From: an uncultured Tateyamaria sp.
GTDB taxonomy: Bacteria > Pseudomonadota > Alphaproteobacteria > Rhodobacterales > Rhodobacteraceae
Length of the DNA: 64,000 bases
Direction of reading: 5' to 3'
Assembly (NCBI RefSeq): GCF_947503385.1
Contig: NZ_CANNDO010000007.1
Span: forward strand, 1 to 64,000
Every line of letters starts with the position of its first letter. The stretch's first letter is position 1. Under the pieces are notes generated by a model. That model did not search any database and was not told the DNA's origin. It worked only from the letters and a program-made list of their open reading frames with translations. The position numbers and the translations under genes are program-made. Positions 41,074 through 56,131 of the stretch are shown here, in pieces.

Positions 41074-41211
41074 GGCGTTTCTCACTTTGTATACCTGCCT
41101 CAGGTAACGCAAAGATAACTGAACTTTCCCTTAATGTCGTGCAATTTCTGCACGCTGGCGGATCGAATGGGTCTCGCTTCGGGGCGCGGGACTTGCTAGA
41201 GGGGCGTCAGA

Positions 41212-41296
41212 GCGGGCGTGGCGGAATTGGTAGACGCACCAGATTTAGGTTCTGGCGCCGCAAGGTGTGGGAGTTCGAGTCTCCCCGCCCGCACCA
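41212..41296 (+). tRNA. tRNA-Leu(UAG)
   Basis: An 85-base class II tRNA with encoded CCA. Acceptor arms GCGGGCG (41212-41218) and CGCCCGC (41286-41292) pair perfectly. The anticodon stem CCAGA/TCTGG encloses TTTAGGT with anticodon TAG at 41246-41248, and the T-arm reads GAGTTCGAGTCTC. It lies between the Hint gene and the 3' end of the accessory operon. Confidence 0.97.
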
Positions 41297-41462
41297 TTTT
41301 TTACCGGCCGACCGACTACGGCGACTTGAGGCCGTGCACGTTCTAAAGTTCTCCACTCACCGGCACCACAACAGATACACGCCACCGGTGTGCGCAATCC
41401 GGGATGCAGCGGGCGCACTTGGGCCACCGCCGGGCCGGATCACCTCCAGTCACCAAAATGCA

Positions 41463-41489
41463 AAACCGCCCCGGCGGGCGGGGCGGTTT
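41463..41489 (-). terminator. Terminator of the accessory operon
   Basis: AAACCGCCCC and GGGGCGGTTT form a perfect 10-base stem with a 7-base loop. On the - strand the hairpin is followed by TTTTGCATTTT. It lies 34 bases after the last gene of the operon. Confidence 0.85.
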
Positions 41490-41522
41490 CATCTTATGGC
41501 TCGCGTAATCTTCCGCGCGCGC

Positions 41523-43115
41523 TTACCGCCAGGGCGAACCGGAGACAGCCGCCAGCGACGCCGCCGGAGGGGCGGGCAGCATCTGGCCACGGCGGCCATG
41601 ACTGCCCGCTTTCATAGCACGCCCACCAAAGGCCATAGCTTTGGCCTTGGACACGGCCCCGCGTGCATATGCCGGAACAAGAACGTGCCCGATATACTTG
41701 ATATTGCTGATTTTCAGGACATGGCCGGGAACACTGTCATCCGGATCGACGGAACTGGCGGTCTTCTTGCCTGAAATCATAAGCGGCTTGCCGATGCTCT
41801 TGTAGGCGGCAAAGACCAACTCCGAGCAGTACCACGCATTCGGGTCCTCTGCCGCGACATAGATCAGGTGGTCAATGACCCCCCAATTGTCAAACGGCTT
41901 GCCAACCTGCGCGCGCATGAACTTGACCAGACCTTTTCGGTCCGCATCCGTCAGATCGGGCACGCGGTAGGCAGCGGCGTAATAGTCATTGTCGAGCGCG
42001 TCGGAAAGCGAATGCTCCGATACGGTGCCATCGGCTTCGATCACCATGCCGCCCCCGATATACATAAAGGCGTGGCTGACCGGGGCCTTGGTATGGTCCT
42101 TGATCGTCTTGCTGAGCAACTCGGTGCCGGTGGAAACAAGAATGTCGCCGACCTCAAGGTGCCGCGCTTCGATCTGGATGGGCGTCGCTCCGCCAATCGC
42201 CAGCTTTTTGTAGCTGTCCTTGGGCGGGAAGTGTTCCTTGCCGTCGTCCACATAGCGTCGCATGACCGCATCGGTGATGCCGCCCAGTTCGGTGGCGCGC
42301 ATGGCGTCCACCATCGTTTCGCGGTGATCGCTGGGCGTGGCCCCCCAAAGCGCCATTTCCTCGGCCATCGACTTGGCCTTGGACACGGTGCTGCGCGCGT
42401 AGGCGGGAACAAGAACGTGCCCGATATACTTGATATTGTTGATCTTTAGCACATGGCCCGGCACGCTGTCATCCGGGTCAACGGCGCTTGCCACCTTTTT
42501 GCCCGAGGTCATCAGCGGCTTGCCGATGCTTTTGTAGGCGGCAAAGACAAGCTCTGAACAGTACCACGCATTCGGGTCCTCGGAGACGACGTAAATCAGG
42601 TGGTCAATGACCCCCCAATTGTCAAAGGGCTTGCCGATCTGGGCACGCATGAACTTGACCAGCCCGGCGCGGTCCGCATCCGTAAGATCAGGCACGCGGT
42701 AAGCGGCGGCGTAATAGTCATTGGCCAGCGCATCCGCGAGCGAGCGTTCGGCGACCTTGCCATCCGCCTCGATGATCTTGCCGCCGCCCACATACATGAA
42801 CGCGTGGCTCACCGGGGCCTTTGTGTGGTCCTTGATCGTCTTGCTCAGCAATTCGGTGCCGGTGGAAACAAGGATGTCACCGACCTCCAGATGCCGCGCC
42901 TCGATCTGGGTGGGGGTTGCCCCGCCTATGGCCAGCTTTTTGTACGTGTCCTTGGGCGGGAAATGCTCCTTGCCGTCATCCACGTACCGCCGCATGAGCG
43001 CGTCGGTGATCCCGCCCATCTCTGTGGCGCGCAAGGCGTCCACCATCGTTTCGCGGTCCTGTGGATGGCCTTCGTACTCATCCAGCTCGTGCTGCAATAC
43101 GTCGTTGTTATCCAT
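41523..43115 (-). CDS. Tandem permuted papain-like (YiiX/NlpC-P60 type) protein
   Basis: A 530-residue soluble protein made of two near-identical copies 244 residues apart. Each copy carries a circularly permuted papain-like domain: a conserved His in APVSHAFMY (H104 and H348) and a Cys in NAWYCSELVFAAY (C186 and C430), with GDILVSTGTELLSKTIKDH before them. Such YiiX/LRAT-like folds act as cysteine peptidases, amidases or acyltransferases. No signal peptide is present. A GAAGGAG site precedes the ATG. It is the last gene of the operon, 32 bases after A4. Both active sites look intact. Confidence 0.8.
   Translation of the reverse strand: MDNNDVLQHELDEYEGHPQDRETMVDALRATEMGGITDALMRRYVDDGKEHFPPKDTYKKLAIGGATPTQIEARHLEVGDILVSTGTELLSKTIKDHTKAPVSHAFMYVGGGKIIEADGKVAERSLADALANDYYAAAYRVPDLTDADRAGLVKFMRAQIGKPFDNWGVIDHLIYVVSEDPNAWYCSELVFAAYKSIGKPLMTSGKKVASAVDPDDSVPGHVLKINNIKYIGHVLVPAYARSTVSKAKSMAEEMALWGATPSDHRETMVDAMRATELGGITDAVMRRYVDDGKEHFPPKDSYKKLAIGGATPIQIEARHLEVGDILVSTGTELLSKTIKDHTKAPVSHAFMYIGGGMVIEADGTVSEHSLSDALDNDYYAAAYRVPDLTDADRKGLVKFMRAQVGKPFDNWGVIDHLIYVAAEDPNAWYCSELVFAAYKSIGKPLMISGKKTASSVDPDDSVPGHVLKISNIKYIGHVLVPAYARGAVSKAKAMAFGGRAMKAGSHGRRGQMLPAPPAASLAAVSGSPWR
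41641..43104. repeat. 732-base tandem direct repeat within a gene
   Basis: Two coding copies offset by exactly 732 bases (244 codons). For example, TTGGCCTTGGACACGG begins at 41641 and again at 42373. Long stretches are identical at DNA level, pointing to a recent duplication or ongoing gene conversion. Confidence 0.85.
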
Positions 43116-43147
43116 GGGAAAATCTCCTTCTCGATAAAGTCAAATGA

Positions 43148-44320
43148 TCAGCCGCCAGTCCCGGTGTTGGGCGGCGCTGCGGATGGGTTGGCGGAATTGG
43201 CCTGAATGTTGGCGATCATGCCCGGATCGGCGAACCGTTCGAGCGGGAACATGTCGGATTTGAATTGCAGATCGACCTCTCCGGTGAGGTTGGCGCTGAC
43301 GTCAATCTCGTTCTCGCTGTCTTTCTGGGAGCTGGACACATAGGCCACCGAGGTCTTTTGCGATCCGCTGACCGGCGACAGAAAGCTGCTGTATTTCAAC
43401 TGGTTCTCATGCTTCATGTCGAACTTCTTGGAGGCCGAAGCGGTGGCGGCATCGCGGGTATCGATGCGAAAGCCCATCTGCGCCTTGATCCGGCCCCGTG
43501 TCACGTTGATCCGGTTGATCCCCATCAGCATCATCGACGACAGCATCTGCTGGCGCGATTGCGCGAGATGTCGGCGCGCAGCGGGGACCACCACCTCTTC
43601 GACATCGCTGAGATCGGCATCGTCGGTCAGACCCATGGTACGGCGCATCCGCGAGGCATCCGCGTCGCTCAGGTCCTTGACCGTGCGCAGCGCGCCCTGA
43701 TTGCCGCTGGTGTCCACCTGATAGGAGGCGGGAAAGGCCGAAGCGACCCAGTCACGCGCAGCGTTATCGGAGATGTTGTCAGACATGAAATCATCCACCG
43801 TTTTGGCCACGTTCGACAACAGCTCGCCAAAGGCTTCCATCTGTTGAATGGACGCGTCCACAATGGCGTTGAACGTGCCCTTGATCAGATCCGCCACAAA
43901 GGTGGGGAATGCGATAGCGTTCAGTGTGTTTTCAGTGACTTGCGCGACGTTGTTGGCAGCGGCTGGGTTAAAGGATGGCTCGTTCATGGGCCGGGCCGTG
44001 GCCTGCGCGGCGATCGGCGCGTCGGCGGGCAGCGCCGACTTGTCAAATTCCATCGTGCGGGTCTTGCGCACCATCGGTGTCTGGCCCAGCTTCAGGCTTT
44101 GCTGCCAGTCATCGCGGATCAGTTCGGCGGTATAGGCCGAAATCTTGTGCATGTTCGCCTGCATCTCGTCCTGCGTCTCGGGCGGCAATTGAGCGTAGGA
44201 CGGGCTGGAGATCAGAAGAGCCGCGACCTGACTTTCCACCAGATCGTTGACAGCACGGATGGGCTTGGGACCGTCCGGGTTGGGGGTGGCGAAATGGCCG
44301 GGCAGGATGTCGTGATCCAT
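43148..44320 (-). CDS. Accessory operon paralogue A4 (DUF2589-like layout)
   Basis: A 390-residue protein, start ATG 44320 overlapping the A3 stop as TGATG; an in-frame GTG three bases upstream is the alternative. The layout is shared with A1-A3: an N-terminal SPSYAQLPPETQ motif (residues 39-50), a helical core FPTFVADLIKGTFNAIVDAS near 139-158 followed by QQMEAFGELL, a helix RRHLAQSRQQML with MGINRINVTRGRIKAQMGF, a Ser/Lys-rich linker, and LTGEVDLQFKSDMFPLERF near the C-terminus. No signal peptide. Closest to A3, sharing the EDWQ/DDWQ-KLGQ region. The last part resembles DUF2589 in layout; this is inference. Confidence 0.7.
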   Translation of the reverse strand: MDHDILPGHFATPNPDGPKPIRAVNDLVESQVAALLISSPSYAQLPPETQDEMQANMHKISAYTAELIRDDWQQSLKLGQTPMVRKTRTMEFDKSALPADAPIAAQATARPMNEPSFNPAAANNVAQVTENTLNAIAFPTFVADLIKGTFNAIVDASIQQMEAFGELLSNVAKTVDDFMSDNISDNAARDWVASAFPASYQVDTSGNQGALRTVKDLSDADASRMRRTMGLTDDADLSDVEEVVVPAARRHLAQSRQQMLSSMMLMGINRINVTRGRIKAQMGFRIDTRDAATASASKKFDMKHENQLKYSSFLSPVSGSQKTSVAYVSSSQKDSENEIDVSANLTGEVDLQFKSDMFPLERFADPGMIANIQANSANPSAAPPNTGTGG

Positions 44321-45666
44321 CACGCGGCCCTCCCTTCGGTGTGTGTGTCCAGTGATTTGGACTTGGCGGGCGTGACTGCCGATTTGACCGTATCGGCGGC
44401 TGCCTTTTTGGGGTCGGGGGCCTTGGGCACTGCGTTGGGTTTGCGGGTCTTCATATGGGCATCAAGGGCGTCGCCTGCGGATGTCTTGGGCGGGGCCGCG
44501 CCGGTCTTCTTGGACGGCGTGTTTTGCTCGGGCACGGGCGTGTTCTTGCGGATGCGTTCCAGCCGTTCGGCAGAGGCGAGGCGATTGAGGGGCATGTAGT
44601 CGGTCGAGAAATGCAGATCGACTTCGCCGGTCAGGTCCGCGCTGACGTCCAGTTCCGCATTTGAATCCTTTTTGCTGGAGGACACATAGGTGACCGAACT
44701 CGACACCGACGCGCCCCAGCCAAAGGCACCAAAGCTGCCCGAGGCTCCGACGCTCACATCCGTCAGGTTCGCCTTGCTGGCGCTGGCGCTGTCGCTGGCG
44801 TCGATCTGAAAGCCCATAGTGGCGCGGATGCGGCCATGGTTGATCACCACCCGTTGCAGCCCGATCATCACCAGAGACGACAGCATTTCGAGCCGCGATT
44901 GCGCCAGCTTGCGGCGTGCGGCAGGCAGCAGGACCTCTTCGATGGTGATGTCGTCGATGCTGTCGACCTTGGTTGACAGGGCCAGCCGTTCCTTGATGCC
45001 CTTGGGCGGATCGGTGGCGTCCGTGGGGGCGGCGGTCACGCCGCCTTGGCCGGGGACCAACTGGATATGTTTGGGATATTGCTGGGCGAGCCATTGTGCG
45101 GCCTGCACGTCCGACACGTTCTCATTCTCAAATTGCTCAACGGTTTTGGACACGTTTTCAAGCAGTTCCATAAAGCTGTCCATTTGCGACGTGGTCGCAT
45201 CGAGGATCGCGCCGAACGTGCCTTTGATCAGATCGGAGACAAAGACCGGAAACGAGATCGCCTTGAGCGTGGACTGGGTGACCGACCCGACACGTGCGGT
45301 TGCGGCCTGCTCAAAGCCTGACCCGGATTGCGCCGTGGAAAGGGTATCGGGGGGCAGCATGTCGGGGTCGATGCCGACAGTTTCGCGGGTCTCCACCGCC
45401 GGGCGCTGGCCCAGCTTGTCCGACAATTGCCAATCCTCCAGCGCGAGGGTCGCTGCGTGCCGCGCGATGCGCCCGATCATGGCCTTGACCGGTCCGTGGC
45501 GCGGCTCCGGCGCACCGGCAAAGGCGGGAGAGGCGGCAACCAGCGCGTCCACCTGTGCGTCGACCAGCGCGTCCAGTTGCGCGGGCCGGGAAGGTCCGTC
45601 GGGGCCGGGCAGCCCCTTGAACGGGCCGGGCAGGGCGTCGGGCCAGTCGTCTTGCGTGTCTGTCAT
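44320..45666 (-). CDS. Accessory operon paralogue A3 (DUF2589-like layout)
   Basis: A 448-residue protein starting MTDTQDDWPDALPG at 45666, where its ATG overlaps the preceding stop as ATGA; a longer frame is rejected for this reason. It has an N-terminal ALVAASPAFAGAP motif, the helical core FPVFVSDLIKGTFGAILDAT near 139-158, the RRKLAQSRLEMLSSL helix leading into VVINHGRIRATMGF, then SSSKKDSNAELDVSADLTGE and a STDYMPLNRLASAERL end. The C-terminal tail is long and rich in Lys, Pro and Ala. It pairs with A4 more than with A1/A2. Confidence 0.7.
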   Translation of the reverse strand: MTDTQDDWPDALPGPFKGLPGPDGPSRPAQLDALVDAQVDALVAASPAFAGAPEPRHGPVKAMIGRIARHAATLALEDWQLSDKLGQRPAVETRETVGIDPDMLPPDTLSTAQSGSGFEQAATARVGSVTQSTLKAISFPVFVSDLIKGTFGAILDATTSQMDSFMELLENVSKTVEQFENENVSDVQAAQWLAQQYPKHIQLVPGQGGVTAAPTDATDPPKGIKERLALSTKVDSIDDITIEEVLLPAARRKLAQSRLEMLSSLVMIGLQRVVINHGRIRATMGFQIDASDSASASKANLTDVSVGASGSFGAFGWGASVSSSVTYVSSSKKDSNAELDVSADLTGEVDLHFSTDYMPLNRLASAERLERIRKNTPVPEQNTPSKKTGAAPPKTSAGDALDAHMKTRKPNAVPKAPDPKKAAADTVKSAVTPAKSKSLDTHTEGRAA

Positions 45667-46610
45667 GCCCAACCTCCGCCCGGGGGTCTGTAGCTGGGGG
45701 TGGGCGCTGCCGGATAGGGCTGCGGGTTCTGCGGTGCGGGACTTTGCCGGGTCAGGGACGCCGCTGCCACCAGCCACATATCCGCATGGTTGAACAGCGC
45801 AGGCGTCGCCGCCGCCAGATCACCGGCCTTGGTCGGTTGCGCGCGCAGCGTCGCCAGATGTTCTGCCAGCCAGCGCAGCATGAACTGGCCGGTTTGCGCA
45901 CGCCGCACGATATCGCTCACCTTTGGGGGCACGCCGCCGGGCGACACGGCCAGCTTTTCGATCAGCGACCACATGTCCCGCGCCTGATACAGCTGGTGCA
46001 GGCCGGGGTGCCCCAGCACCGCCACGGCAGAGCGCAATTGCCGGTTCAGGATTTGTGCTGTGTGCCCGACGGACGCGATCTGGCGGCGGTCCATGTCCGT
46101 CAGCACCGCCTCGACCACCATGCCAACGCCGCGCGCGGCGTATTGGCGGTCGCCATTTGTGCGTGCTTGCGCCATCTGGCTCAACTGCGTGCTCAACAGC
46201 CGCAACAGCTTGCGGAAATCCCGCGCGCCGCTAAAGCCGAAAAGCTGTTGGAACACCTGCGCCCGACGACTGTCGTCGTACCAGCCGCCCCGCTGCGCGG
46301 TCGCGAAATCCTCAAGCAGTTTCGACAATTCGCGGTCGCGGATGGGCAGCGTCACACGCTGTTCGACCACCAGTTCGGCCAGCTGCATCAGGCCCGATGT
46401 CTCAAGCTCCGCATACATATAGAGCGCCGCGATGCTTTCCAGCTTGGTGCGGTCGAGCCCGCCGGGGCCCGTGGCGTGCAGGGGTGGCAACTGGACCGGC
46501 TCGACCGAAAGTGCGGCGGCGGCGACCGGCGCGCCGTAGCGCTGCAAGGTGCGCGCCTGATGCTCCAGAATGGAGCCGAATGTCAGGGCACTTTGGCAGA
46601 GCGAAACCAT
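45663..46610 (-). CDS. Small relative of the 731-residue accessory protein
   Basis: A 315-residue all-helical protein without signal peptide. Residues about 60-225 resemble residues 413-625 of the 731-residue protein in the same operon: ALYMYAELE pairs with AIYVVYQCE, and LHQLYQARDMWSLIEKLA pairs with IKQVYGVNSMWQVIERVA, at similar spacing. The tail is Pro-rich (NPQPYPAAPTPSYRPPGGG). Family not recognised. It sits between A2 and A3 and overlaps A3 by four bases, so it is probably made in step with them. Confidence 0.6.
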   Translation of the reverse strand: MVSLCQSALTFGSILEHQARTLQRYGAPVAAAALSVEPVQLPPLHATGPGGLDRTKLESIAALYMYAELETSGLMQLAELVVEQRVTLPIRDRELSKLLEDFATAQRGGWYDDSRRAQVFQQLFGFSGARDFRKLLRLLSTQLSQMAQARTNGDRQYAARGVGMVVEAVLTDMDRRQIASVGHTAQILNRQLRSAVAVLGHPGLHQLYQARDMWSLIEKLAVSPGGVPPKVSDIVRRAQTGQFMLRWLAEHLATLRAQPTKAGDLAAATPALFNHADMWLVAAASLTRQSPAPQNPQPYPAAPTPSYRPPGGGWA

Positions 46611-46613
46611 GAC

Positions 46614-47717
46614 CTAGCCCCCCGGCATCGGCGGGATGGGCACGGTGGGTGCGGGTGCGCCGCCTTGCTGCGAAGGGGCCTTGGCCTTGGCGGCGACCTC
46701 TTCCTGATTGACGCCCAGCAACTCAGTCATGCGCTCCAGCGGGAAATAGTCGGTCTTGAATTGCAGATCGACATTGCCTGTCAGCTTGACCTTGGTTTCC
46801 GAGCTTTGCTCGTCATCGTTCTCGGTGTTGGTGTCGGTGGTGATGTTCAGGGTCGAATCGCGCTCGTAGCTGCGCTTGGGTTTGAGGAACCAGAACCCTT
46901 TGTGCTTGGACTTGTACTTGGTCTCGCGGTTGTATTCGAACCCCGTCTGCTTGTCGAAATGGCGCTTGGACAGTGTCTCGACGTTCAGGTCGAACTGCAC
47001 GCCTGCCTTGATCTGGCCCTTGGTCACAACGATGCGGGTCAGGCCCATGGTCATCATCGTGGCCAGCATCTGCTGGCGGTCCATCGACATCTTCTTGCGG
47101 GCGGCGGTCACCAGTTCCTTTTCGGTGTCCTCGTCGTCCATATCGTCAAAGTTGAAGGGCAGGCCCAGATCGGCCATGAAGTCGGGTGCATTGTCCGGGT
47201 TGGCGTCATCCTTGGGCACCACCCGGTTGTTTTGCAAATCCGCCTGCAGGTGGTCGGGATACTGATCCAAAAGGAAGTCGCGGCCCTGTTCTTCGGACAC
47301 GTTGTCCTTCATGTACTGGTCCACGGATTTGGCGACATTCGACACCAACTCGCCATAGGCTTCCATTTGCTGGATATTGCTGTCCACCACGGCCTGAAAC
47401 ACGCCTTGGATCAGTTCAGCGACAAAGCCGGGGAAATCCACCTGCTTGATCGTATTGGTGAATGCCTCGCTCATCTGGCCGGTAAATTCGGCATCCGAGG
47501 GTTGGTCGCCCGTGGCCATCTGGCGCGCGGGCATCCCGCCACCGCCGGGCATGAGGCCAAGCGCATCCGCGCCGCCCACATCGGCGATATAGCCGATCAC
47601 CTTGTCCGTATCGGCCAGCACCTTGGCCTGTTGCTCTGGCGGCAGTTGCCGGAACGAGTTTGAGTTTTGCAGGACAGAGGCGGCGCGGGCGCGGGCCTGT
47701 TGCGTGGCGGCGGACAT
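46614..47717 (-). CDS. Accessory operon paralogue A2 (DUF2589-like layout)
   Basis: A 367-residue protein with ATG at 47717 overlapping the preceding stop as TGATG; GTG three bases upstream is possible. Motifs: SFRQLPPEQQAKVL near residue 21, core FPGFVAELIQGVFQAVVDSN then QQMEAYGELVSNVAKSVDQY, the helix ARKKMSMDRQQMLATM leading to GLTRIVVTKGQIKAGVQF, a Lys/Ser-rich variable segment, and LTGNVDLQFKTDYFPLERM. The C-terminus is Pro-rich. Closest to A1. Cytoplasmic, function unknown. Confidence 0.7.
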   Translation of the reverse strand: MSAATQQARARAASVLQNSNSFRQLPPEQQAKVLADTDKVIGYIADVGGADALGLMPGGGGMPARQMATGDQPSDAEFTGQMSEAFTNTIKQVDFPGFVAELIQGVFQAVVDSNIQQMEAYGELVSNVAKSVDQYMKDNVSEEQGRDFLLDQYPDHLQADLQNNRVVPKDDANPDNAPDFMADLGLPFNFDDMDDEDTEKELVTAARKKMSMDRQQMLATMMTMGLTRIVVTKGQIKAGVQFDLNVETLSKRHFDKQTGFEYNRETKYKSKHKGFWFLKPKRSYERDSTLNITTDTNTENDDEQSSETKVKLTGNVDLQFKTDYFPLERMTELLGVNQEEVAAKAKAPSQQGGAPAPTVPIPPMPGG

Positions 47718-48823: not shown

Positions 48824-48860
48824 GATGGCACTCCTTCCGGGTTGGGTGTGACGGGATGGG

Positions 48861-48878
48861 GGCGGCGGGTGCGCCGCC
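48861..48878. terminator. Hairpin in the only sizeable gap of the accessory operon
   Basis: GGCGGCG and CGCCGCC form a perfect 7-base stem with a GGTG loop, directly after the stop of the 731-residue gene. There is no T-tract on the - strand, so attenuation or mRNA processing is likelier than full termination. Confidence 0.4.
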
Positions 48879-51074
48879 TCACATCCCGATCATCGAACGG
48901 ATCTGGTCAGGCGACGGCGTCTGACCGGCGGCCAGCATGTCACGCAGTTGGCCGGACACATCATTGCCGCCGCCCATCGCGGGCATGTCCTGCCCGCCAA
49001 AGCTGCCGAAACCGGGGATGGTCGGCGTGGCTGGCGTGTCGGCGGGCTGGCTCATCTTGGCGACGTGGTCGTCCTGCACACCGTTGACGGCAAGGTAATA
49101 CTGCGACGCTTGGAACATCCGCATACTGTCGGCGTAGGACAGATCGGCGGTGTCGTCCTCATGTTCGGCAAACAGCTTGTTGCCCGAGGACAGCGACCAG
49201 ATAGTGCTGCGCCGTGCCACTATGTCGAGGATGGTGCGCACCTCTTCGGCCAATGTGCGGTGCTTGACGATGTTGACGGTGGTGCCGAACTCGCTTTGGG
49301 CGACGCGTTCGATCACCTGCCACATGCTGTTGACGCCGTAGACCTGTTTGATCCGCGGCAGGCTGAGGATTTCCATAGCCCGCTTGAGCTGGGTGCCCAT
49401 GCGTTCGGCGGCAAACTGCGTCCCGGCATAGCCGTAAAGCGTGCAATTGGCCGCCAGATCGCGCACGGCCTTGCGGACTTGTTCGCCCGTGGTGGCCTTG
49501 GCACGGCGACCGCGGGTCTCGAACATCTCGCTGACGGTTTGTTGGCGATTGTATTCCGAGGTGGAGAAAATCACCCGCTCCAACAGCTCGTTGAACTCGA
49601 CATTCGCGGTCACGTCCCGGCCCACATTGCCGCCGCCCGCGTTGAGCGCGCGGGTGTATTGCGCGGCCCGGCCATTGGGGCTGACCCGGTCGTCCTTGTC
49701 CCAGTAGTAATCGTCGAGCTTGCGGGCGAGGTTGTCGCCGGACATGGGCAAAAGGCCCGCCATGAACAATTCCACGATCCGGTCCACCACCGGGAACAGC
49801 ATCATCTGCTCGCACTGATAGACCACGTAGATGGCGGACATGGCCCGGATGTTGTCGGGCACAATCTGCTGATCCTCCATGCCCCCGCCAGACAGGGGCG
49901 GCAGGTCGAGAAAGGCGATGCCCGATCCGCCCCCGTCGCCACCGGCCCCGGCCAGCGTGACGTCGTTGTACTTGGCGGTTGTGGCGGCGGCGAACCCGGC
50001 GCTGCCGGGCGGGCGCGTGTCATAGAGGTCGACCATCGCGCGGCCAACCTTGCCAAAAGCATCGGCAAAGATCGGGCGCATCGGCTCAAGAACACCGTAG
50101 GCGGCGGCGAACACGTCCGAGCGCAGGCTAAAGCTGGCCTCAAACGCGTCATTGCCCACGACAATGCCTTCGCCAGAGGAGGAGGCCGCCGATTTCAGTT
50201 CGTCCACGGCCTTGCGCACATTGTCATAAAACGCCCGGTCGTCCGGGTCATAGGTGCCGTCGGCCAACAAAAGGCCGATGACGGCGTGGCGCATCCCGGG
50301 CTTGTTGCCCATGCCCAGCTTGACCAGCGCATCCTCGACCCCGCGGATGTAATTCCGCTGGCCAGAGGACAATGTCTCGGTCGTGCCGGAGGTGTCGTAT
50401 TGCAGGTTCCGCGGCAGTTTGGCCGCGTCAAAGGCGAAATTGGCTGTGAATGCGTCGAAAATATTTTGGGGTGGCTGGTCAGGCATGGTGTCGGCCTCGT
50501 TGGAAGTGTCAGAATTGGAATTGGTATCGCTTGAATCTGTGCCGGTGTCGGGCGTGTCGCCCGCGCCGCCGACGACAACGACCTCGTCTTCGGTCACGAA
50601 CGGGTCGGGCATGTCGCCGCCTTCGTCGGCCCCCAGATCTTCGGTGTCGGCCTCGGCCAGCATCTCGATCCCGGTGGCCTCAAGAAAGGCATCGCGGACC
50701 TTGTCGTCTGCGGCGTCACCGCGCCCGGCAAAGGCGCGGGCCAGCGATGCGAGCCTCGCATCGCTTTCGCCTACGAAATCGGACAGGGCGATCAGTGCCG
50801 CGCGGTAGCGCGGCGTGTCCCAGTTGGCGGCAAAGCGGGCCACGTGGCTGGTGATGATCAACCCGATGATGCCACGCAGAATGTTGCGGGTGGGCACAAG
50901 GTCAGGGCCGATCCTGTCTGCGACACGCGCCAGCCGGGGACGGACGAGGGGACCGGCCAGAGACAGGAAATCGTCCAGTGCGGCGCGTTGCGCCTGCGGC
51001 GTGGCGATGCCCGGAAACAGGATGTCTTCCAGTTCCTTGCGGATGTTGCGTTCCAGTTTGGGGGTATCAGGCAT
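48879..51074 (-). CDS. Large acidic accessory protein
   Basis: A 731-residue protein without signal peptide; AGGAGG lies just before the ATG at 51074. Residues 1-140 are helical. Residues 141-200 are a strongly acidic, Asp/Thr/Ser-rich low-complexity spacer. Residues 205-400 form a second domain (RNLQYDTSGTTETLSSGQ onward). Residues 410-625 form a helical domain related to the 315-residue protein of this operon. The tail is Pro/Gly/Met-rich. I do not recognise any domain. Its length and its relative in the operon suggest a structural or adaptor role. It overlaps the protease gene by eight bases. Confidence 0.65.
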   Translation of the reverse strand: MPDTPKLERNIRKELEDILFPGIATPQAQRAALDDFLSLAGPLVRPRLARVADRIGPDLVPTRNILRGIIGLIITSHVARFAANWDTPRYRAALIALSDFVGESDARLASLARAFAGRGDAADDKVRDAFLEATGIEMLAEADTEDLGADEGGDMPDPFVTEDEVVVVGGAGDTPDTGTDSSDTNSNSDTSNEADTMPDQPPQNIFDAFTANFAFDAAKLPRNLQYDTSGTTETLSSGQRNYIRGVEDALVKLGMGNKPGMRHAVIGLLLADGTYDPDDRAFYDNVRKAVDELKSAASSSGEGIVVGNDAFEASFSLRSDVFAAAYGVLEPMRPIFADAFGKVGRAMVDLYDTRPPGSAGFAAATTAKYNDVTLAGAGGDGGGSGIAFLDLPPLSGGGMEDQQIVPDNIRAMSAIYVVYQCEQMMLFPVVDRIVELFMAGLLPMSGDNLARKLDDYYWDKDDRVSPNGRAAQYTRALNAGGGNVGRDVTANVEFNELLERVIFSTSEYNRQQTVSEMFETRGRRAKATTGEQVRKAVRDLAANCTLYGYAGTQFAAERMGTQLKRAMEILSLPRIKQVYGVNSMWQVIERVAQSEFGTTVNIVKHRTLAEEVRTILDIVARRSTIWSLSSGNKLFAEHEDDTADLSYADSMRMFQASQYYLAVNGVQDDHVAKMSQPADTPATPTIPGFGSFGGQDMPAMGGGNDVSGQLRDMLAAGQTPSPDQIRSMIGM

Positions 51075-52449
51075 TTTGGCCTCCTCCTTGTTTCTGCAGC
51101 ACGTCCCGTGTGGCGGCCAATGCGGCGCCCGCGTTCAGGCATCCCGCGCCGATCTCGTCTGCGGGGCTCAACCCCCGTGTGGCGGTCGATGTCAGAATGG
51201 ACGTGATGGTTTCGGTGCTAAGCGTGCCGCCCAAACGGTCGCTCAGCGACAGCATCAGCGCCACGGTGCCCGACACGAACGGGGCGGCGTGGCTGGTGCC
51301 GGTGGATGGTTTGTAGCCCTGCAATCCGGCGCTGATCACGTCGGTGCCGGGCGCGCATAGCGTCACATGTGCGCCGATAGTCGAAAACCGCGCACGGTAG
51401 CCCGACGCGTTCATGGCCCCCACAGCGATCACCCCGGGCAGGGCGGCGGGGTAGAACACCTCGCGCCTGCCGGAATTGCCCATGGCCGCGACGCAGACTG
51501 CGCCCCTTTTCTGAGCGTAGGCGATGCTGTCACTGTGGACCGCCGGAACGCCCACGGGCACGTCATGTTCGGATGTGCCCAGCGACAGGTTCAGCACCCG
51601 CGCACCCATATCGGTGGCGGATTTGATCGCGGCATCAATGTCGATGGTGCCACCGATGCCAACGACCCGGCCTCCGGCGCCGCGGGCTGCGGCAAGCGCG
51701 CGGATCGGGATCAGACCGCAGGTGCCGGCTAGACCGGGCAAAATGCTCAGCCCGCGTGCGCCGATAATGCCCGCCACATGACTGCCGTGACCGGTTTCGT
51801 CCCGCGCGCAGAAATCGCGCCCTTTGCTGTCGCCCAGCAGTTCAACACCGCTCGCCAGTGTGCCCATGCCCAGATCGACTGTGTCCAACCCGCCCTGAAT
51901 GCGCCCGTCAAATTCCGGGTGATCCAGCGCCACACCGGTGTCGATCACCGCCACGCGTACGCTGGTCTGACCCGGCTCAATGGCGAGCGCTTGGGCGGCC
52001 TGCACGCGTTTGTGCGGCGCCTCGACCAGCGCGCGGTCCGGTGTGGATACGGATGGGTCGGCCCCGGCCAGCAGCGGGGCGTGCGCCAGCGGTTCCGGCA
52101 TCGCCCATTCCACGCCCGGATCGGCAGACATTTCCTGTGCCACGGCTTCGGCAGCACATTTGTCCGACAGTTCGACCGCAACCACGCGGTCAAGGCCCAT
52201 GGATATCTCCAGATCGTCGAAACCCTGTGCCCGCTCGCCTGCCTTGTTCACGCCAAAGGCTGACCCAAAGACCCGCGAACAGCGCATTCCCGACACGCAG
52301 CAATGCACCGAATGGTCGATGCTGCCGCCATCATCCAGCGTGTTCATCGCGCGCGCCGCCCCTTGGGCCACGTCCAGATGCGCCGGCAGATGGACCGGCG
52401 CCGTGCGCAGCTTGGCCATCACGCGGCCCGTGGTGTTGGGGCGGGTCAT
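51067..52449 (-). CDS. Subtilisin-like serine protease (S8), cytoplasmic type
   Basis: A 460-residue S8 protease. The catalytic triad is complete: Asp170 in VAVIDTGVALDHPEF, His221 in ETGHGSHVAGIIGA, Ser386 in GTSHAAPFVSGTVAL, with oxyanion Asn325 in AAMGNSG. Residues 60-125 resemble an inhibitor-I9-like propeptide (RVVAVELS ... DPGVEWAMPEP). A short Cys cluster (HCCVSGMRC) lies near residue 50. There is no signal peptide. Its ATG overlaps the preceding stop as ATGA. Within the operon it may mature or activate the paralogous proteins or respond to a trigger; this is inference. Confidence 0.88.
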   Translation of the reverse strand: MTRPNTTGRVMAKLRTAPVHLPAHLDVAQGAARAMNTLDDGGSIDHSVHCCVSGMRCSRVFGSAFGVNKAGERAQGFDDLEISMGLDRVVAVELSDKCAAEAVAQEMSADPGVEWAMPEPLAHAPLLAGADPSVSTPDRALVEAPHKRVQAAQALAIEPGQTSVRVAVIDTGVALDHPEFDGRIQGGLDTVDLGMGTLASGVELLGDSKGRDFCARDETGHGSHVAGIIGARGLSILPGLAGTCGLIPIRALAAARGAGGRVVGIGGTIDIDAAIKSATDMGARVLNLSLGTSEHDVPVGVPAVHSDSIAYAQKRGAVCVAAMGNSGRREVFYPAALPGVIAVGAMNASGYRARFSTIGAHVTLCAPGTDVISAGLQGYKPSTGTSHAAPFVSGTVALMLSLSDRLGGTLSTETITSILTSTATRGLSPADEIGAGCLNAGAALAATRDVLQKQGGGQNA

Positions 52450-53255
52450 GGGTCTGACCCCTCGGGCTCATCCGGGGCGGGGGCGTCCCAGCCTTCGGCC
52501 TCTTCGGGCACCAGATCAATCCGTTGCAGCGATCCATCCGGCAGGGACAGTTCCAGCGCGCCGGTGTTTTCATCTTCGGGCAGTTCAAGATCGATATGGC
52601 TGGCGGATGCAGCACGGATGGGCACCATCCGGTTGTTGAGCCGCGCCTGAACCGGGCGCTGCGGGTCGACAAGACCAGCGCCACGCAGCCGCATCTGACG
52701 CTGTTTCTGGCGGATGGGCACCATGTTTTCGGTCGCGTCGGGGTCCACCGGCACGGGCGCGCCGGGGCCGATGTTGACGTAGTTGATCCGGGGCCGCGAC
52801 AGCTTGAGCGCTTCTTGCAACCGGTTCGGATCAACGCCGGAGAACCGCGATATCCCGTCCTGACCCGAGCGCTGATTGAGACGGTTGAGCTGCGCGGTAT
52901 TGCGCACCCCAAGCCTCTGAAGTCGCACGGTTTCTTCGGGTGCCAGCCCGGCCTCTTCCAGCGTTGGGGCCTGTGTCAGTTCCATCGAGATCGTGTTTTC
53001 CTCGATCATGGCGCGGGTGATGGTGGCAAAGCCGAGATGAATCTGGCTTGCGCCTTCCTCGTTCGGGGCCGAGGGGCGCAGGCGCACCACGCCGTCCTGA
53101 TCCATTTCGACAAAGACGGACAGGTCGATGGCAAAATCCTTGAGCGCAAAGGTCAGCGGGCGGTTCACCGCCTTGAGCCGCAGCGCATCCTGCGTCTTGT
53201 CCAGCTGTGCCGTGATCGCCTCAAGGAAATCTTCGATGGGGGCGGCGAGGGTCAT
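52446..53255 (-). CDS. Accessory protein with beta domain and helix-hairpin-helix-like segment
   Basis: A 269-residue protein. The N-terminal 95 residues form a strand-rich domain (LTFALKDFAIDLSVFVEMD, then IHLGFATITRAMIEENTI) that in outline resembles the trypsin-co-occurring (trypco) type domain; this is a weak inference. Residues 100-150 read LAPEETVRLQRLGVRNTAQL followed by NRLNQRSGQDGISRFSGVD, similar to helix-hairpin-helix DUF4332-like segments. The C-terminal 110 residues are strand-rich and acidic at the end. It overlaps both neighbours by four bases. Confidence 0.5.
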   Translation of the reverse strand: MTLAAPIEDFLEAITAQLDKTQDALRLKAVNRPLTFALKDFAIDLSVFVEMDQDGVVRLRPSAPNEEGASQIHLGFATITRAMIEENTISMELTQAPTLEEAGLAPEETVRLQRLGVRNTAQLNRLNQRSGQDGISRFSGVDPNRLQEALKLSRPRINYVNIGPGAPVPVDPDATENMVPIRQKQRQMRLRGAGLVDPQRPVQARLNNRMVPIRAASASHIDLELPEDENTGALELSLPDGSLQRIDLVPEEAEGWDAPAPDEPEGSDP

Positions 53256-53503
53256 GGCGCCTCTCCCGTTGGCGCGCGCACCATACTAAAGCGCATTGTG
53301 GACAGGGGGGCTTCGAACCCGGTGCGCATCTGCGTGCTGGCGGGCCGTGAACCTGCGACCAAACCGGCCTCGGTGTCGTCAAAACCAACCTCCATCGGCA
53401 ATGTCAGCCGCGCCGCGGTCACTTTGACGACATCCTGCCCCGTGTCGGCGGCAAAGGCGTCGATCAGCCCGATCAGCGCTGTCTGAAGCTCGGGCATACT
53501 CAT
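53252..53503 (-). CDS. Small accessory protein (83 residues)
   Basis: An 83-residue protein starting MSMPELQTALIGLIDAFA. The ATG at 53503 overlaps the A1 stop as ATGA, and its own stop overlaps the next start, so it is translated in a coupled chain. Longer upstream frames are rejected. The second half (LTLPMEVGFDDTEAGLVAG, then RTGFEAPLSTMRFSMV) is strand-rich. Family not recognised; it likely partners the 269-residue protein. Confidence 0.65.
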   Translation of the reverse strand: MSMPELQTALIGLIDAFAADTGQDVVKVTAARLTLPMEVGFDDTEAGLVAGSRPASTQMRTGFEAPLSTMRFSMVRAPTGEAP

Positions 53504-54630
53504 TTCAACTCCTCCGGTGCAGGCACCGACCACGCGTTTTCCGCGACGGGATGCGCCTCCAGCGCCTGACCGGTGCTGACCGGAGTTGTGGGCGCGGCAG
53601 GATCGACAGGCGCGGGGGCCTGTTCTGCGGGGAAAGGTTTGGCGTGGTTGTTGATCAGCTGGATCGCCTGACTGTCGGCAAACCGTTCCATGGGGAAGTA
53701 ATCGGTCTTGAACTTGATCCGCACTTCGCCGGTCAGTTCGGCCCGAGCCGTGATCTCCGACTGGGTGTTGAGATTGGTTGTGGTGACCTTGACGCCCGCA
53801 GCCCCAAAAGGATTGCGCCCGGCGGTGCCCTGCATCGACCAATTGGTGGTGGAGGTGTCGTTGAATGTGACATCCGCAGACTGCGTGGCATCCACGGTAA
53901 AAATCATCTTGGCGTTGATCTCACCGTCTTCGACCACCGTGCGCTGAAGGCCCATCATCACGATGGTGGCCAGCGATTGGTGCCGCGTTTCGGCCAGCGT
54001 GCGGCGCACCTGCGGAATGACGGTCTCGTTCAGCGCGGGCTCATCAATGTCGCCCAGATCGCCAAAGCCAAGGTCCTGCAAAAAACTGGGCAGTTGGGTG
54101 CCGCCGGACGCCTCGGGCGGCGCGACTTTGAGCGTGGGCGAGCCGCCCGCCAGATCGCGCTGGAACACGCCGCCGTAATTGTCGGCAAGGTGGTCGCGCG
54201 CCATGTCGTCGGTGACATGCTCGTCCATGAACTGATCGACCGTCTTGGACACCGAGGCCAGCAACTGGCTATAGGCTTCCATCTGCTGGATCGAACTGTC
54301 GACGATGGCCTGAAACGTGCCTTGGATCAGCGACGCGACAAAGCTGGGGAAATCAATGGCGTTCAGCGTGTCCGCCGCCACTTCACCCATGTTGCGCACC
54401 GGGTCGTTGACCGCTGTGCCGCCGCCGCCGCCACCTGCTGTGCCGCCTTGGGTGCCCTGCATGGGCCGCGCCATAGCCCCGTTTGGCCCCTGTTCGAGAT
54501 AGCCAAACACTTTTTGCGCCTGACCCAACATCTCTTGCTGTTGCGCCGGGGGCAGCGACCGGAAGGCAGGGCTGGATTGCAGCGCCGTGCTCATTTCGCG
54601 GGCCGATGGGGGCAGGCCTGCGGGGGTCAT
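53500..54630 (-). CDS. Accessory operon paralogue A1 (DUF2589-like layout)
   Basis: A 376-residue protein starting MTPAGLPPSAREM at 54630, coupled by ATGA to the upstream gene. Residues 20-46 carry SPAFRSLPPAQQQEML. A Gly-rich linker (about 60-72) leads to the helical core FPSFVASLIQGTFQAIVDSS at 94-113 then IQQMEAYSQLLASVSKTVDQ. Residues 207-247 hold the QVRRTLAETRHQSL helix and QRTVVEDGEINAKMIF, and 299-317 read LTGEVRIKFKTDYFPMERF. It is the founder-like shortest member with A2. Cytoplasmic; function unknown. Confidence 0.7.
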   Translation of the reverse strand: MTPAGLPPSAREMSTALQSSPAFRSLPPAQQQEMLGQAQKVFGYLEQGPNGAMARPMQGTQGGTAGGGGGGTAVNDPVRNMGEVAADTLNAIDFPSFVASLIQGTFQAIVDSSIQQMEAYSQLLASVSKTVDQFMDEHVTDDMARDHLADNYGGVFQRDLAGGSPTLKVAPPEASGGTQLPSFLQDLGFGDLGDIDEPALNETVIPQVRRTLAETRHQSLATIVMMGLQRTVVEDGEINAKMIFTVDATQSADVTFNDTSTTNWSMQGTAGRNPFGAAGVKVTTTNLNTQSEITARAELTGEVRIKFKTDYFPMERFADSQAIQLINNHAKPFPAEQAPAPVDPAAPTTPVSTGQALEAHPVAENAWSVPAPEELK

Positions 54631-55811
54631 GTCGCGGCCCCCATGTCAGGTGCAGAGACGTCCAAGCCATCCAGCGACAGGTCCGCGTTTTTGGCGATGG
54701 GCGCAACCAGACCCGACTGGGCGCTGTCGCGGCCAAAAAAGTCGGCGATCTGTTCGACCATGATCTGTGGCGTCGGCATTTGAACCGGAGCCCCTTTGTC
54801 CGCGCGCAGCAGCGCCAGCACGCGGGCGTGGGTTTCCACGCCAAAGAGGCCGGGCGTGTCGCCCAGACCCTGTTCCTTTTGAAAGGTCTCGATCGTTTTG
54901 CCCGGTGCGACATGGGCCAGAGCGGCGGTGCGCATCGCGTCGGATTTTAGCGGGCTGATGGCCGCCAGCAGGGCGGGCAGGGCGCGGTCAGCGCCCATCT
55001 GGATCACCCGCTCGACCACGAGGGCCAGGCCTTTTTCACTGTTCAGACCCAACTGATGCGCCAGCGACAGGATGGGCAGCAGATAGACCTGCGCCGTGAT
55101 CTTGAACTGCACGGCCTGAAAGGCGGGCACCTTGGCCGCCGCCTTGAACCGGGCCACCCATTCCTTGGACCAGACCAGCTTGCCTGAGACGGGCTGCAAT
55201 TGCGGCAGATCGGCACCGACCCCGCCCGAAGCGGCGGGCAGGGTGTTGGTGACGGTGAGCAGCGCCTGTGGATCAGCTTCGGGGAAATCATCGGCGGGAC
55301 CGAACGCTGTGGCAAAGGCCGCGGCATCGGCGGCGTGCATCTCTTTGAGAAGGCGACCCAGATCGCCGCTGGCCTGCGTAAACCGGCCCAGCCCATAGCG
55401 CAGCCCGTGCCCGTCCAGATTGGCCTGACAGCGGCCATAGGCCGGTTCCTGACCCGCCGGGGTGGTCGCAAGGTAAAGAATGCGCCGCATCAGCGCGGGC
55501 GTGAGCGTGGCCGTGCCCGAGGGGGCCGGCTGTGGCGCAGGGGCAGGGGCAGGGGCAGAGGCAGGGGCAGACGGGACAGGGGCGGCCTGCTGTGTCGCCA
55601 TGCCGGCCAGTTCCAAAGGGCTGGCATCAAGATCGACAAAGTCACTTGGCCGGTCCACAGTCAGCGGCTCTGGCATAGGGGTAGGGATCGGGGCAGGGGC
55701 AGACCGGCAAAGATCACCGGTGTCGTTGTCGCGGTATCCCATGCTTTGCGCCTGCACGGCGGGGGCAAGAATACGGGCGCGGCTGGCGGCAATGTCGAGG
55801 GCGGGCATCAT
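54627..55811 (-). CDS. Accessory protein with lysozyme-superfamily (GH46-like) domain
   Basis: A 394-residue protein. Residues 75-100 are Pro/Ala-rich, encoded by a GGGGCA-type repeat. Residues 104-300 look like a chitosanase/GH46-type lysozyme fold: YGRCQANLDGHGLRYG then LGRFTQASGDLG, and later FQAVQFKITAQVYLLPIL with SEKGLALVVERVIQMG. Asp133 aligns with the GH46 catalytic Asp, but the expected Glu about 18 residues earlier is replaced within LATTPAGQ. It may bind rather than cleave glycans, or the likeness may be only structural. No signal peptide. Confidence 0.5.
   Translation of the reverse strand: MMPALDIAASRARILAPAVQAQSMGYRDNDTGDLCRSAPAPIPTPMPEPLTVDRPSDFVDLDASPLELAGMATQQAAPVPSAPASAPAPAPAPQPAPSGTATLTPALMRRILYLATTPAGQEPAYGRCQANLDGHGLRYGLGRFTQASGDLGRLLKEMHAADAAAFATAFGPADDFPEADPQALLTVTNTLPAASGGVGADLPQLQPVSGKLVWSKEWVARFKAAAKVPAFQAVQFKITAQVYLLPILSLAHQLGLNSEKGLALVVERVIQMGADRALPALLAAISPLKSDAMRTAALAHVAPGKTIETFQKEQGLGDTPGLFGVETHARVLALLRADKGAPVQMPTPQIMVEQIADFFGRDSAQSGLVAPIAKNADLSLDGLDVSAPDMGAAT
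55538..55570. repeat. Short tandem repeat in the Pro/Ala-rich linker
   Basis: A run of GGGGCA-type hexamers (CAGGGGCAGGGGCAGGGGCA and near copies) encodes the Pro-Ala linker of the 394-residue protein. Its length may vary between strains by slippage. Confidence 0.6.
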
Positions 55812-56005
55812 CGTGCCGCCTCGCTGCCGTCAATCGACCGTTCGATGATACCGCCCACTTCGGACGGGTCCGCGAACCAGTGTTTGACGGCCTTGTCGGA
55901 ATTGGCGGGGTGGATTTGTTCAACCCAGCCGCGCCACACCTCTTCGCCCTTGCCGGGGTCCTGACGTTCGCTGCGATACGCGACGATGAAACGGAATGAC
56001 TGCAC
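55808..56005 (-). CDS. Small first gene of the accessory operon
   Basis: A 65-residue soluble protein with GTG at 56005 and a weak GGGGCTGAG site. It reads SFRFIVAYRSERQDPGKGEE and then VWRGWVEQIHP, with SEVGGIIERSI at the end. Its stop overlaps the start of the 394-residue gene (ATGA), which is the main evidence that it is real. Family not recognised. Confidence 0.6.
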   Translation of the reverse strand: MQSFRFIVAYRSERQDPGKGEEVWRGWVEQIHPANSDKAVKHWFADPSEVGGIIERSIDGSEAAR

Positions 56006-56108: not shown

Positions 56109-56131
56109 AAGCCCGCGCTAGTGGCGGGCTT
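56109..56131 (-). terminator. Terminator of the BTAD regulator gene
   Basis: AAGCCCGC and GCGGGCTT pair around a 7-base loop, and on the - strand the hairpin is followed by TTTTT (ending 56106). It lies about 25 bases after the regulator stop, separating it from the accessory operon, whose promoter should lie at 56006-56108. Confidence 0.85.

What the first reader, a model, noticed from the sequence alone, without database searches (positions are those of the whole stretch)
41523..56005. Thirteen-gene cytoplasmic operon with two kinds of peptidase: candidate undescribed system
Thirteen - strand genes run from 56005 to 41523. Most are joined by ATGA, GTGA or TGATG overlaps, and the group is bounded by a terminator at 41463-41489 and by the regulator's terminator at 56109-56131. 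None has a signal peptide. They encode four paralogues, a 731-residue acidic protein and its smaller relative, an S8 protease with intact triad, a double papain-like protein, a lysozyme-like protein and several unknowns. Strong coupling suggests fixed stoichiometry, as in a complex or defence/conflict machine. The function is inference.
Basis: partly seen in the sequence, partly recalled or inferred. Interest (0 to 1): 0.88.

Follow-up and report, generated by a model that had tools for sequence, protein, structure and literature searches.

The report
Unnamed mobile multi-hydrolase gene system
A block of thirteen bacterial genes without a name turns out to recur, in the same order, in distantly related bacteria, and looks like a self-assembled machine that carries swappable enzymes for breaking cell walls and proteins; what it is used for is still a guess.

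Summary
The operon is real, at the stated coordinates, and the gene set recurs. A pattern scan of 84,980 species genomes gave 36 loci; with others I count 35 genomes, of which 24 carry all five single-copy core families E, S8, G, H and J, in one order. The 24 span Pseudomonadota, Myxococcota, Acidobacteriota and Actinomycetota. In the window's genus only its own genome has it (1 of 20). Core proteins co-vary (r 0.71-0.89).

New: H (368 aa) has the PT-barrel (aromatic prenyltransferase) fold (Foldseek E 2.3e-10), but the window's branch lacks three of four candidate diphosphate anchors. E has a Trypco2-like conflict-system domain in 8 of 22 members. First and last genes are exchangeable hydrolases: trypsin, papain-like C70/C92, amidases, M15. 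The four paralogues are helix plus long-hairpin proteins of no established family.

Best guess: an NTPase-free, protease-gated effector complex that damages cell envelopes; own-cell lysis versus delivery is unresolved, and every mechanistic step is inference. Ten literature searches found no description; the library is partial.

The parts
55808..56005 (-). gene A, 65 aa, unknown; first gene of the operon
   Evidence: ORF with 4-base overlap to B; relatives seen only in L029 and weakly in L081
54627..55811 (-). gene B, 394 aa, GH46/lysozyme-like domain; exchangeable front effector position
   Evidence: PF01374 26.2 bits, just under cut-off 27; relatives have the same domain or trypsin/Amidase_2/C70 instead; GH46 catalytic residues not clearly conserved
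53500..54630 (-). gene C, 376 aa, paralogue 1 (helix + long beta-hairpin family)
   Evidence: alignment A1; hairpin seen on the model of paralogue L
53252..53503 (-). gene D, 83 aa, small conserved core protein
   Evidence: profile hits between a paralogue and E in most full loci
52446..53255 (-). gene E, 269 aa, Trypco2-like N-terminal domain, HhH-like middle, TIG-like end
   Evidence: Pfam on 22 members: Trypco2 in 8 (best 1.7e-4), TIG in 2, DUF4332 in 2; the window's own copy has no match
51067..52449 (-). gene F, 460 aa, S8 (subtilisin-like) serine protease with conserved N-terminal region
   Evidence: PF00082 2.3e-38; Asp/His/Ser kept by eye in 25 rows
48879..51074 (-). gene G, 731 aa, acidic core protein
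   Evidence: present between S8 and H in the full loci; no Pfam family above noise in 26 members
47717..48823 (-). gene H, 368 aa, PT-barrel (ABBA/DMATS prenyltransferase) fold
   Evidence: AF2 pLDDT 88.1, pTM 0.85; CymD 6os3 E 2.3e-10, TM 0.65-0.68, 105 matches E<0.001; Trp_DMAT in 9 of 26 members, not the window's
46614..47720 (-). gene I, 368 aa, paralogue 2
   Evidence: alignment A1
45663..46610 (-). gene J, 315 aa, relative of the C-terminal half of G
44320..45666 (-). gene K, paralogue 3, 448 aa if it starts at the ATG overlapping J's stop (ORF as listed runs to 45777)
43148..44323 (-). gene L, 391 aa, paralogue 4 (structure predicted)
   Evidence: AF2 pLDDT 69.6: helices 121-268, strands 271-290, 301-310, 319-328, 339-357
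41523..43115 (-). gene M, 530 aa, tandem C92 permuted papain-like domains; exchangeable back effector position
   Evidence: PF05708 9.3e-19; 300-nt repeat 41631-41930 / 42363-42662 at 85%
41461..41491 (-). terminator-like stem after M
   Evidence: 13 pairs, T-rich tail
56109..56131 (-). terminator-like stem between regulator and operon
   Evidence: 8 pairs, T tail
56155..57096 (-). BTAD-domain regulator, 313 aa, linked to the operon in other genomes too
   Evidence: PF03704 1.1e-21; homologues near the cluster in 9 of 25 genomes gene-called, window included
41212..41296 (+). tRNA-Leu; shared gene order with sister genomes stops here
   Evidence: ARAGORN; blastn against 4 sister genomes

Best explanation
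A horizontally spread, NTPase-free effector complex of the biological-conflict type. Shown: a constant core (four or five hairpin paralogues, D, E, S8 protease, G, H, J) is encoded in fixed order and is flanked front and back by proteins whose catalytic domains change from genome to genome, many of them with a shared non-catalytic stretch. Inferred: the core assembles in the cytoplasm; E (Trypco2-like) tethers protease and effectors; the S8 protease is the switch that cleaves the assembly when a trigger is met; the hairpin paralogues form a ring or a membrane-contacting layer; the released hydrolases then attack peptidoglycan and proteins, so the envelope fails. I lean to the producer's own envelope (programmed lysis, as in abortive infection), because the window's operon has no secretion signal or secretion apparatus and I noticed no immunity gene at a conserved place (not searched systematically). 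H modifies or binds a partner; in the window's branch it probably no longer prenylates.
For: Fixed order and co-variation: all 10 pairs of the five core families correlate at r 0.71-0.89, permuted maximum 0.24-0.35, 24 genomes. Exchangeable enzymes at both ends: C92 (window, L013), trypsin (L014, L015, L022), trypsin + Amidase_2 + C70 (L061, L063), trypsin + C70 (L060), Amidase_2 + C92 + C70 (L048), Amidase_3 + trypsin (L074), M15/VanY (L016, L020). B proteins of different kinds share an N-terminal stretch of about 150 aa, and several M-type proteins a C-terminal stretch of about 180 aa. Trypco2-like domain in 8 of 22 E proteins; Trypco domains were named as neighbours of trypsin-like peptidases in conflict systems (PMC7159879, passages). 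S8 triad kept. Patchy spread: any paralogue in 1 of 20 genomes of the genus and 1 of 289 of the class, the window's own in both cases, and in 5 of 394 of the family, of which two, the window's and G533, hold the full set. The G583 variant couples S8-G-paralogue-D-E to an 895-aa protein with a GH24 lysozyme domain (5.6e-26 to a PDB lysozyme) and a stretch like muramoyl-pentapeptide carboxypeptidase (2.3e-8).
Against: No trigger, target or lysis has been shown. PADLOC gave only S8 models (subtilase, IetS). The hairpin as a whole is amphipathic (z>2 in 69 of 90) but its distal part, which would enter a membrane, is not (6 of 90), so a pore is not supported there. The paralogue model is of middling confidence and matched nothing in the PDB below E 0.09 or among viral models below 0.012. 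GH46 catalytic residues are not clearly conserved in B (12 rows by eye), so the window's own B may not be a hydrolase, and the window's B and M lack the shared stretches found in other loci. The window's E has no Trypco2 match itself. A sigma-54 site expected from the neighbouring activators was not found (0 of 17 loci).
Confidence: 0.33

Rival explanations
1. A delivered particle: the core assembles a toxin-loaded nanoparticle in the cytoplasm that is set free by lysis of some cells and carries the hydrolases into neighbours or eukaryotic cells, as extracellular contractile injection systems do by other means.
For: Effectors with a constant region and swappable catalytic domains, no signal peptides in the window's operon, several paralogues of one structural family; weak best fold matches of the paralogue include ring, pore and collar subunits with long hairpins (E 0.01-1, not significant).
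Against: No tube, sheath, spike, baseplate or AAA ATPase family in the operon (Pfam on all 13; PHROGs on A-J); a weak Phage_HCP1 match in 5 of 94 paralogue members is best 0.039. No relative of the paralogue in the viral-contig scan or in 50,697 phage records, nor of L044's H in the phage records.
Confidence: 0.25
2. A maturation pathway for a modified peptide: S8 protease plus PT-barrel prenyltransferase, as in cyanobactin pathways.
For: H has the aromatic prenyltransferase fold; the S8 protein scores against the PatA/PatG protease model (84.7 bits, cut-off 421).
Against: The window's branch of H lacks three of four candidate diphosphate anchors; the small gene D is conserved rather than hypervariable; no YcaO or transporter family in the operon; four large paralogues and wall hydrolases are not explained; the T7SS mycosin model scores the protease higher (154.9 bits) than PatA.
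Confidence: 0.08
3. A housekeeping or nutritional envelope-remodelling operon that happens to be mobile.
For: Peptidoglycan hydrolases and proteases; upstream two-component and chemotaxis-like genes.
Against: Rare and patchy even within a genus, no signal peptides in the window's operon, enzymes not constant.
Confidence: 0.1
4. An immune-type system that blocks phage by proteolysis without killing the cell, with the hydrolases directed at phage or at incoming particles.
For: Trypco2-like domain and many proteases.
Against: Amidases and muramidases have no substrate in the cytoplasm; no NTPase sensor in the 13 proteins.
Confidence: 0.14

Closest known systems
VMAP/vWA-MoxR ternary and other NTP-dependent conflict systems with Trypco1/Trypco2 (PMC7159879, passages seen)
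   Same: Trypco2-like domain, trypsin-like and other peptidases, lysozyme- and papain-like effector domains, swappable effectors
   Different: no NTPase, vWA or MoxR family in the operon; core families unnamed; fixed order of ten or more genes
DMATS-type aromatic prenyltransferases (CymD, PriB, TleC)
   Same: PT-barrel fold of H; type I members keep Arg, Lys-x-Tyr and Arg at candidate anchor strands
   Different: 9-16% identity to the fold matches listed; profile match weak and in 9 of 26 members only; type II, including the window, lost three anchors; part of a protein machine, not of a metabolite cluster as far as seen
DUF2589 proteins
   Same: order of motifs: LIxGxxxA helix, a strand motif, then an SDxxP-like end; often in tandem pairs, with amidase-like (by eye) or peptidoglycan-binding genes near in some loci
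   Different: profile match not significant (1 of 150 column shuffles scored as high, the reversed alignment nearly so); about half the size
DUF6683 (PF20388)
   Same: 10 of 94 paralogue members match, best 4.3e-4; function unknown
   Different: the window's L does not match, nor do C and I or K; kinship not followed up
Bacterial gasdermins with adjacent proteases (recalled)
   Same: idea of a protease that switches a membrane-active partner
   Different: no gasdermin among the 50 listed fold matches of the paralogue; several paralogues; no demonstrated pore
Cyanobactin PatA/PatG + PatF (pathway recalled)
   Same: S8 protease and PT-barrel protein in one operon
   Different: no YcaO, no precursor seen, protease far below the model's cut-off

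Membership tests
DMATS/ABBA prenyltransferase | PT-barrel fold | tested here: met
   Foldseek E 2.3e-10, prob 1.00, TM 0.65-0.68 to CymD; 105 matches E<0.001; the 50 listed are all prenyltransferases of this fold
DMATS/ABBA prenyltransferase | match to the family profile above its cut-off | tested here: not met
   window: no match; 9 of 26 members match Trp_DMAT, best E 5.6e-4; the PF11991 search gives no match in G000 at 0.01
DMATS/ABBA prenyltransferase | four basic residues that hold the diphosphate (Arg119, Lys187, Arg248, Arg378 in TleC, PMC4786772 passages) | tested here: inconclusive
   13 of 26 rows (type I) have Arg, Lys and Arg at the first three candidate sites; the 13 type II rows, window included, lack all three. 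Sites were paired by eye by strand order, not by superposition
DMATS/ABBA prenyltransferase | prenyl transfer activity | not testable with these tools
   needs an assay
NTP-dependent Trypco conflict system | Trypco2 domain | tested here: inconclusive
   8 of 22 E members, best 1.7e-4; window's E none
NTP-dependent Trypco conflict system | NTPase (MoxR, STAND, AAA) in the operon | tested here: not met
   no NTPase family in the 13 proteins; an AAA/cyclase protein lies next to the L048 cluster
DUF2589 | significant match to PF11655 or profile-profile match | tested here: inconclusive
   no PF11655 match among the 25 of 36 families shown for 94 members; hhalign P 0.006, probability 6%, a colinear full-length path only with a lowered threshold, global mode failed; 1 of 150 shuffles as high, reversed alignment 21.2 against 24.7
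Contractile injection system / phage tail | sheath, tube, baseplate or phage structural gene | tested here: not met
   Pfam on all 13; PHROGs on A-J; no relative of the paralogue in the viral-contig scan or phage records
Known anti-phage defence system | PADLOC model match other than generic protease | tested here: not met
   10 of the 13 proteins scanned (A, B, C, E, F, G, H, J, L, M); only subtilase and IetS models, all on the S8 protein
Cyanobactin pathway | precursor peptide and YcaO | tested here: not met
   no YcaO family in the 13; D is conserved across loci

The most novel reading that the evidence does not exclude
A new class of machine: an NTPase-free, protease-switched assembly of hairpin-ring subunits with a docked PT-barrel protein, loaded at both ends with interchangeable wall- and protein-degrading enzymes, passed between phyla as one block. 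In type I clusters the PT-barrel prenylates a machine subunit to bring it to the membrane, a use of aromatic-prenyltransferase chemistry in a conflict system that I do not know from print; in type II it survives as a binding scaffold.
Probability: 0.25. Interest if true: 0.93.

Novelty: categorically new. Interest (0 to 1): 0.82.

Why it matters
A block of ten or more genes kept in order in four phyla (and in part in two more, Chloroflexota and Gemmatimonadota, where contigs end), yet present in about one genome in a hundred or fewer in the groups sampled, is strong evidence for a selected machine that the libraries searched do not name. If it works as proposed it adds a way of assembling and switching lytic enzymes without an NTPase, and puts the aromatic prenyltransferase fold in an unexpected setting. 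Two deep types that differ in the candidate active site of H make a direct test possible.

Tried and rejected
Viral or plasmid origin: the paralogue query against viral contigs gave none, phages none (L044's H none); H in plasmids gave one, an 880-kb Burkholderia replicon. Contractile system, cyanobactin pathway: see membership rows. NCBIfam and PADLOC: S8 and C92 models, below the NCBIfam cut-offs, and noise. Sigma-54 control: an activator homologue lies near 7 clusters, but no -24/-12 site was found upstream of B in 17 loci. DUF2589 kinship: suggestive, not significant. DUF6683 (10 of 94 paralogue members, best 4.3e-4) and, for H, Qn_am_d_aIII (5 of 26, best 0.0039) were seen and not followed up. 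Pore reading: amphipathic periodicity holds for the hairpin base only. Integrative element: shared order stops at tRNA-Leu in 4 of 4 sister genomes compared, but the sisters' right flank lies on another contig, and no copy of the tRNA end and no match to my typed integrase motifs was found in the stretches read; a rearrangement is as likely. Fold searches of the paralogue: nothing significant in PDB or viral models. Literature: ten searches listed no paper describing this gene set; the library is partial. DMATS chains were not reached by sequence from the H profile or one H member.

Rows dropped: L034 (frame broken) and L026 (over-long ORF) from the H alignment; L022, whose S8 lies in two ORFs, from the S8 alignment; loci L001-L005 and L009-L011 from the core tables as copies of the window or of L021 (L011 was kept in A4); three plasmid rows from the structure input for the paralogue, and the plasmid row and the L011 copy from that for H.
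Full report
WHAT IS THERE. Thirteen minus-strand ORFs fill 56005-41523; I call them A to M in order of transcription. Eight of 12 junctions overlap by four bases and one by eight; gaps are 55, 3 and 32 bases (the eighth overlap takes the ATG at 45666 as the start of K). Two terminator-like stems bound the group. No protein of the operon shows a signal-peptide-like start; the most hydrophobic stretch is one in G, mean 1.68 with charged residues in it. C, I, K and L are paralogues. J resembles the C-terminal half of G. F is an S8 protease and M a tandem of C92 papain-like domains from a duplication.

DOES IT RECUR. One pattern scan of 84,980 species genomes with the paralogue profile returned 36 loci. 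Five pairs of loci are two contigs of one genome, so 31 genomes; adding the window, G583 and G690 and a Burkholderia pyrrocinia replicon gives 35. Of the 35, 24 hold all of E, S8, G, H and J: Pseudomonadota, Myxococcota (two of them titled Deltaproteobacteria), one Pyrinomonadaceae and one Nocardioides. Five are cut by contig ends (L023, L025, L031, L036, L039; Chloroflexota and Gemmatimonadota are among these), one is decayed (L041, Cupriavidus), one is a variant without H and J (G583), and four hold a lone paralogue, split or truncated in three of them (G432/L047, L046, L043, G690). The order is B - paralogue - D - E - S8 - G - H - one to three paralogues - J - one or two paralogues, on one strand. 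The search was made with the paralogue, so it cannot count core genes that occur without it; an H search of 299 genomes of the phylum found only the window's genome, and H is single-copy in 18 of 18 genomes searched through their loci (19 given, one not held). The set is rare: a paralogue in 1 of 289 genomes of the class and 1 of 20 of the genus, the window's own each time, and in 5 of 394 of the family, two of them with the full set.

ONE UNIT. Pairwise distances of E, S8, G, H and J over 24 genomes correlate at 0.71 to 0.89 for all ten pairs; the largest value in 999 permutations was 0.24 to 0.35. A tree of the joined core has two deep groups of 11 and 13. Myxococcota and the genus Ramlibacter appear in both groups, which suggests transfer between lineages; the tree tool itself warns that this is no proof.

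H IS A PT-BARREL PROTEIN. The AlphaFold2 model has pLDDT 88.1 and pTM 0.85, with repeated beta-beta-alpha-alpha units. Foldseek finds bacterial and fungal aromatic prenyltransferases: CymD E 2.3e-10, TM 0.65-0.68; 105 matches below 0.001; the 50 listed are all of this kind, at 9-16% identity. Pfam Trp_DMAT matches 9 of 26 members by sequence, best 5.6e-4, but not the window's protein. In TleC the diphosphate is held by Arg119, Lys187, Arg248 and Arg378 (PMC4786772, passages). By order of strands I pair the first three with LRF, K-x-Y-Y and QR in H: present in 13 of 26 rows, absent in the other 13, window included. The 22 tree rows that could be scored split as the tree does; L034 and L026 were not scored. 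So the window's H is a member of the fold but probably not a prenyltransferase. The pairing is by eye.

E, G AND THE PARALOGUES. Pfam on 22 E proteins gives Trypco2 in 8, TIG in 2, DUF4332 in 2, none in the window's. Trypco1 and Trypco2 were named as neighbours of trypsin-like peptidases in VMAP conflict systems (PMC7159879, passages; see also PMC10907252, passages). G has no family above noise in 26 members. Of 94 paralogue members 10 match DUF6683 (best 4.3e-4), a family of unknown function, and 5 match Phage_HCP1 (best 0.039). The paralogue model (pLDDT 69.6) has helices, then four strands that read as one long hairpin, median 89 residues in 91 rows. Nothing in the PDB matches below E 0.09, nor among viral models below 0.012. 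The hairpin shows beta-type periodicity (z>2 in 69 of 90) but its distal part does not (6 of 90). A DUF2589 profile aligns in the same motif order over the full length when the threshold is lowered, with weak statistics: 1 of 150 shuffles as high, and the reversed alignment close behind.

EXCHANGEABLE ENZYMES. At the front (B) and back (M) the enzymes change: GH46-like, below the cut-off, in the window, L028 and L029; trypsin, Amidase_2 and C70 in L061 and L063; trypsin and C70 in L060; Amidase_2, C92 and C70 in L048; C92 in the window and L013; trypsin in L014, L015 and L022; Amidase_3 and trypsin in L074; M15/VanY in L016 and L020; no family above a cut-off in four M-position proteins of gamma and delta loci. 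B proteins with different enzymes share an N-terminal stretch; several M-type proteins share a C-terminal one; the window's B and M show neither at E 1e-4. The GH46 active residues are not clearly conserved in 12 B proteins by eye. The G583 variant carries an 895-aa protein with a GH24 lysozyme (5.6e-26 to a PDB lysozyme) and a stretch like muramoyl-pentapeptide carboxypeptidase (2.3e-8); its first part reads to me like a CHAT/caspase-type protease, by eye only.

CONTROL AND PLACE. In 25 genomes gene-called with flanks, a BTAD regulator homologue lies near the cluster in 9 (in two of them downstream on the other strand), and a sigma-54 activator homologue in 7 (in three of them downstream on the other strand) (family checked in one by Pfam, and by annotation in another). 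No sigma-54 site was found before B in 17 loci. In four sister genomes gene order is shared up to the tRNA-Leu at 41296 and then differs.

READING. Constant core, fixed order, variable hydrolases often with a constant non-catalytic part, a conflict-type adaptor and a conserved protease together point to an effector machine. That it acts on the envelope follows from amidases, muramidases and carboxypeptidases in relatives. Whose envelope is open; I lean to self-lysis since the window's operon has no secretion device and no immunity gene was noticed, but immunity genes were not searched for systematically. All steps of mechanism are inference.

Noticed in passing
window 41212-41296 and 38300-64000: Gene order shared with 4 of 4 sister genomes compared stops at the 3' end of tRNA-Leu; the sisters' next genes lie on another contig of this genome (C4 near 174.8 kb). 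Large insertion or rearrangement.
   Followed up: partly
window 58924-62220: 1098-aa protein with CheB methylesterase, CheR methyltransferase and PAS-like regions (PDB matches), next to a histidine kinase (57738-58946) and a lone receiver (57234-57623); a 21-nt repeat at 60038-60226 lies inside it.
   Followed up: partly
window 40567-41112: Hint_2-domain protein just beyond tRNA-Leu on the conserved-flank side.
   Followed up: no
L077 4543-17132: Variant of the system in G583: S8, G, one paralogue, a new 724-aa protein, D, E, then a 553-aa protein that reads like an M15 peptidase (by eye) and a lysozyme-bearing protein; no H or J.
   Followed up: partly
L079 10652-12071: A lone paralogue (271 aa) followed by a 212-aa protein with a weak match to D: perhaps the simplest form of the unit.
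   Followed up: partly
L050, L051, L055, L058, L059: DUF2589 genes in tandem pairs; in L059 near a peptidase-domain ABC transporter and HlyD protein, in L055 and L056 near a peptidoglycan-binding protein. One paper held the name DUF2589.
   Followed up: partly
L041 7269-13484: Decayed copy in Cupriavidus necator A5-1: H and two paralogues present, no S8, E or G match in the 7 kb before H, J and last paralogue in pieces.
   Followed up: no
L048 24405-29002: Downstream of the Burkholderia copy: adenylate/guanylate cyclase-AAA-TPR protein and a patatin-like phospholipase.
   Followed up: no
L042, L044, L045, L032 (M position): Proteins of 880-1079 aa without Pfam match above a cut-off; L042, L044 and L045 are related by blastp.
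   Followed up: no
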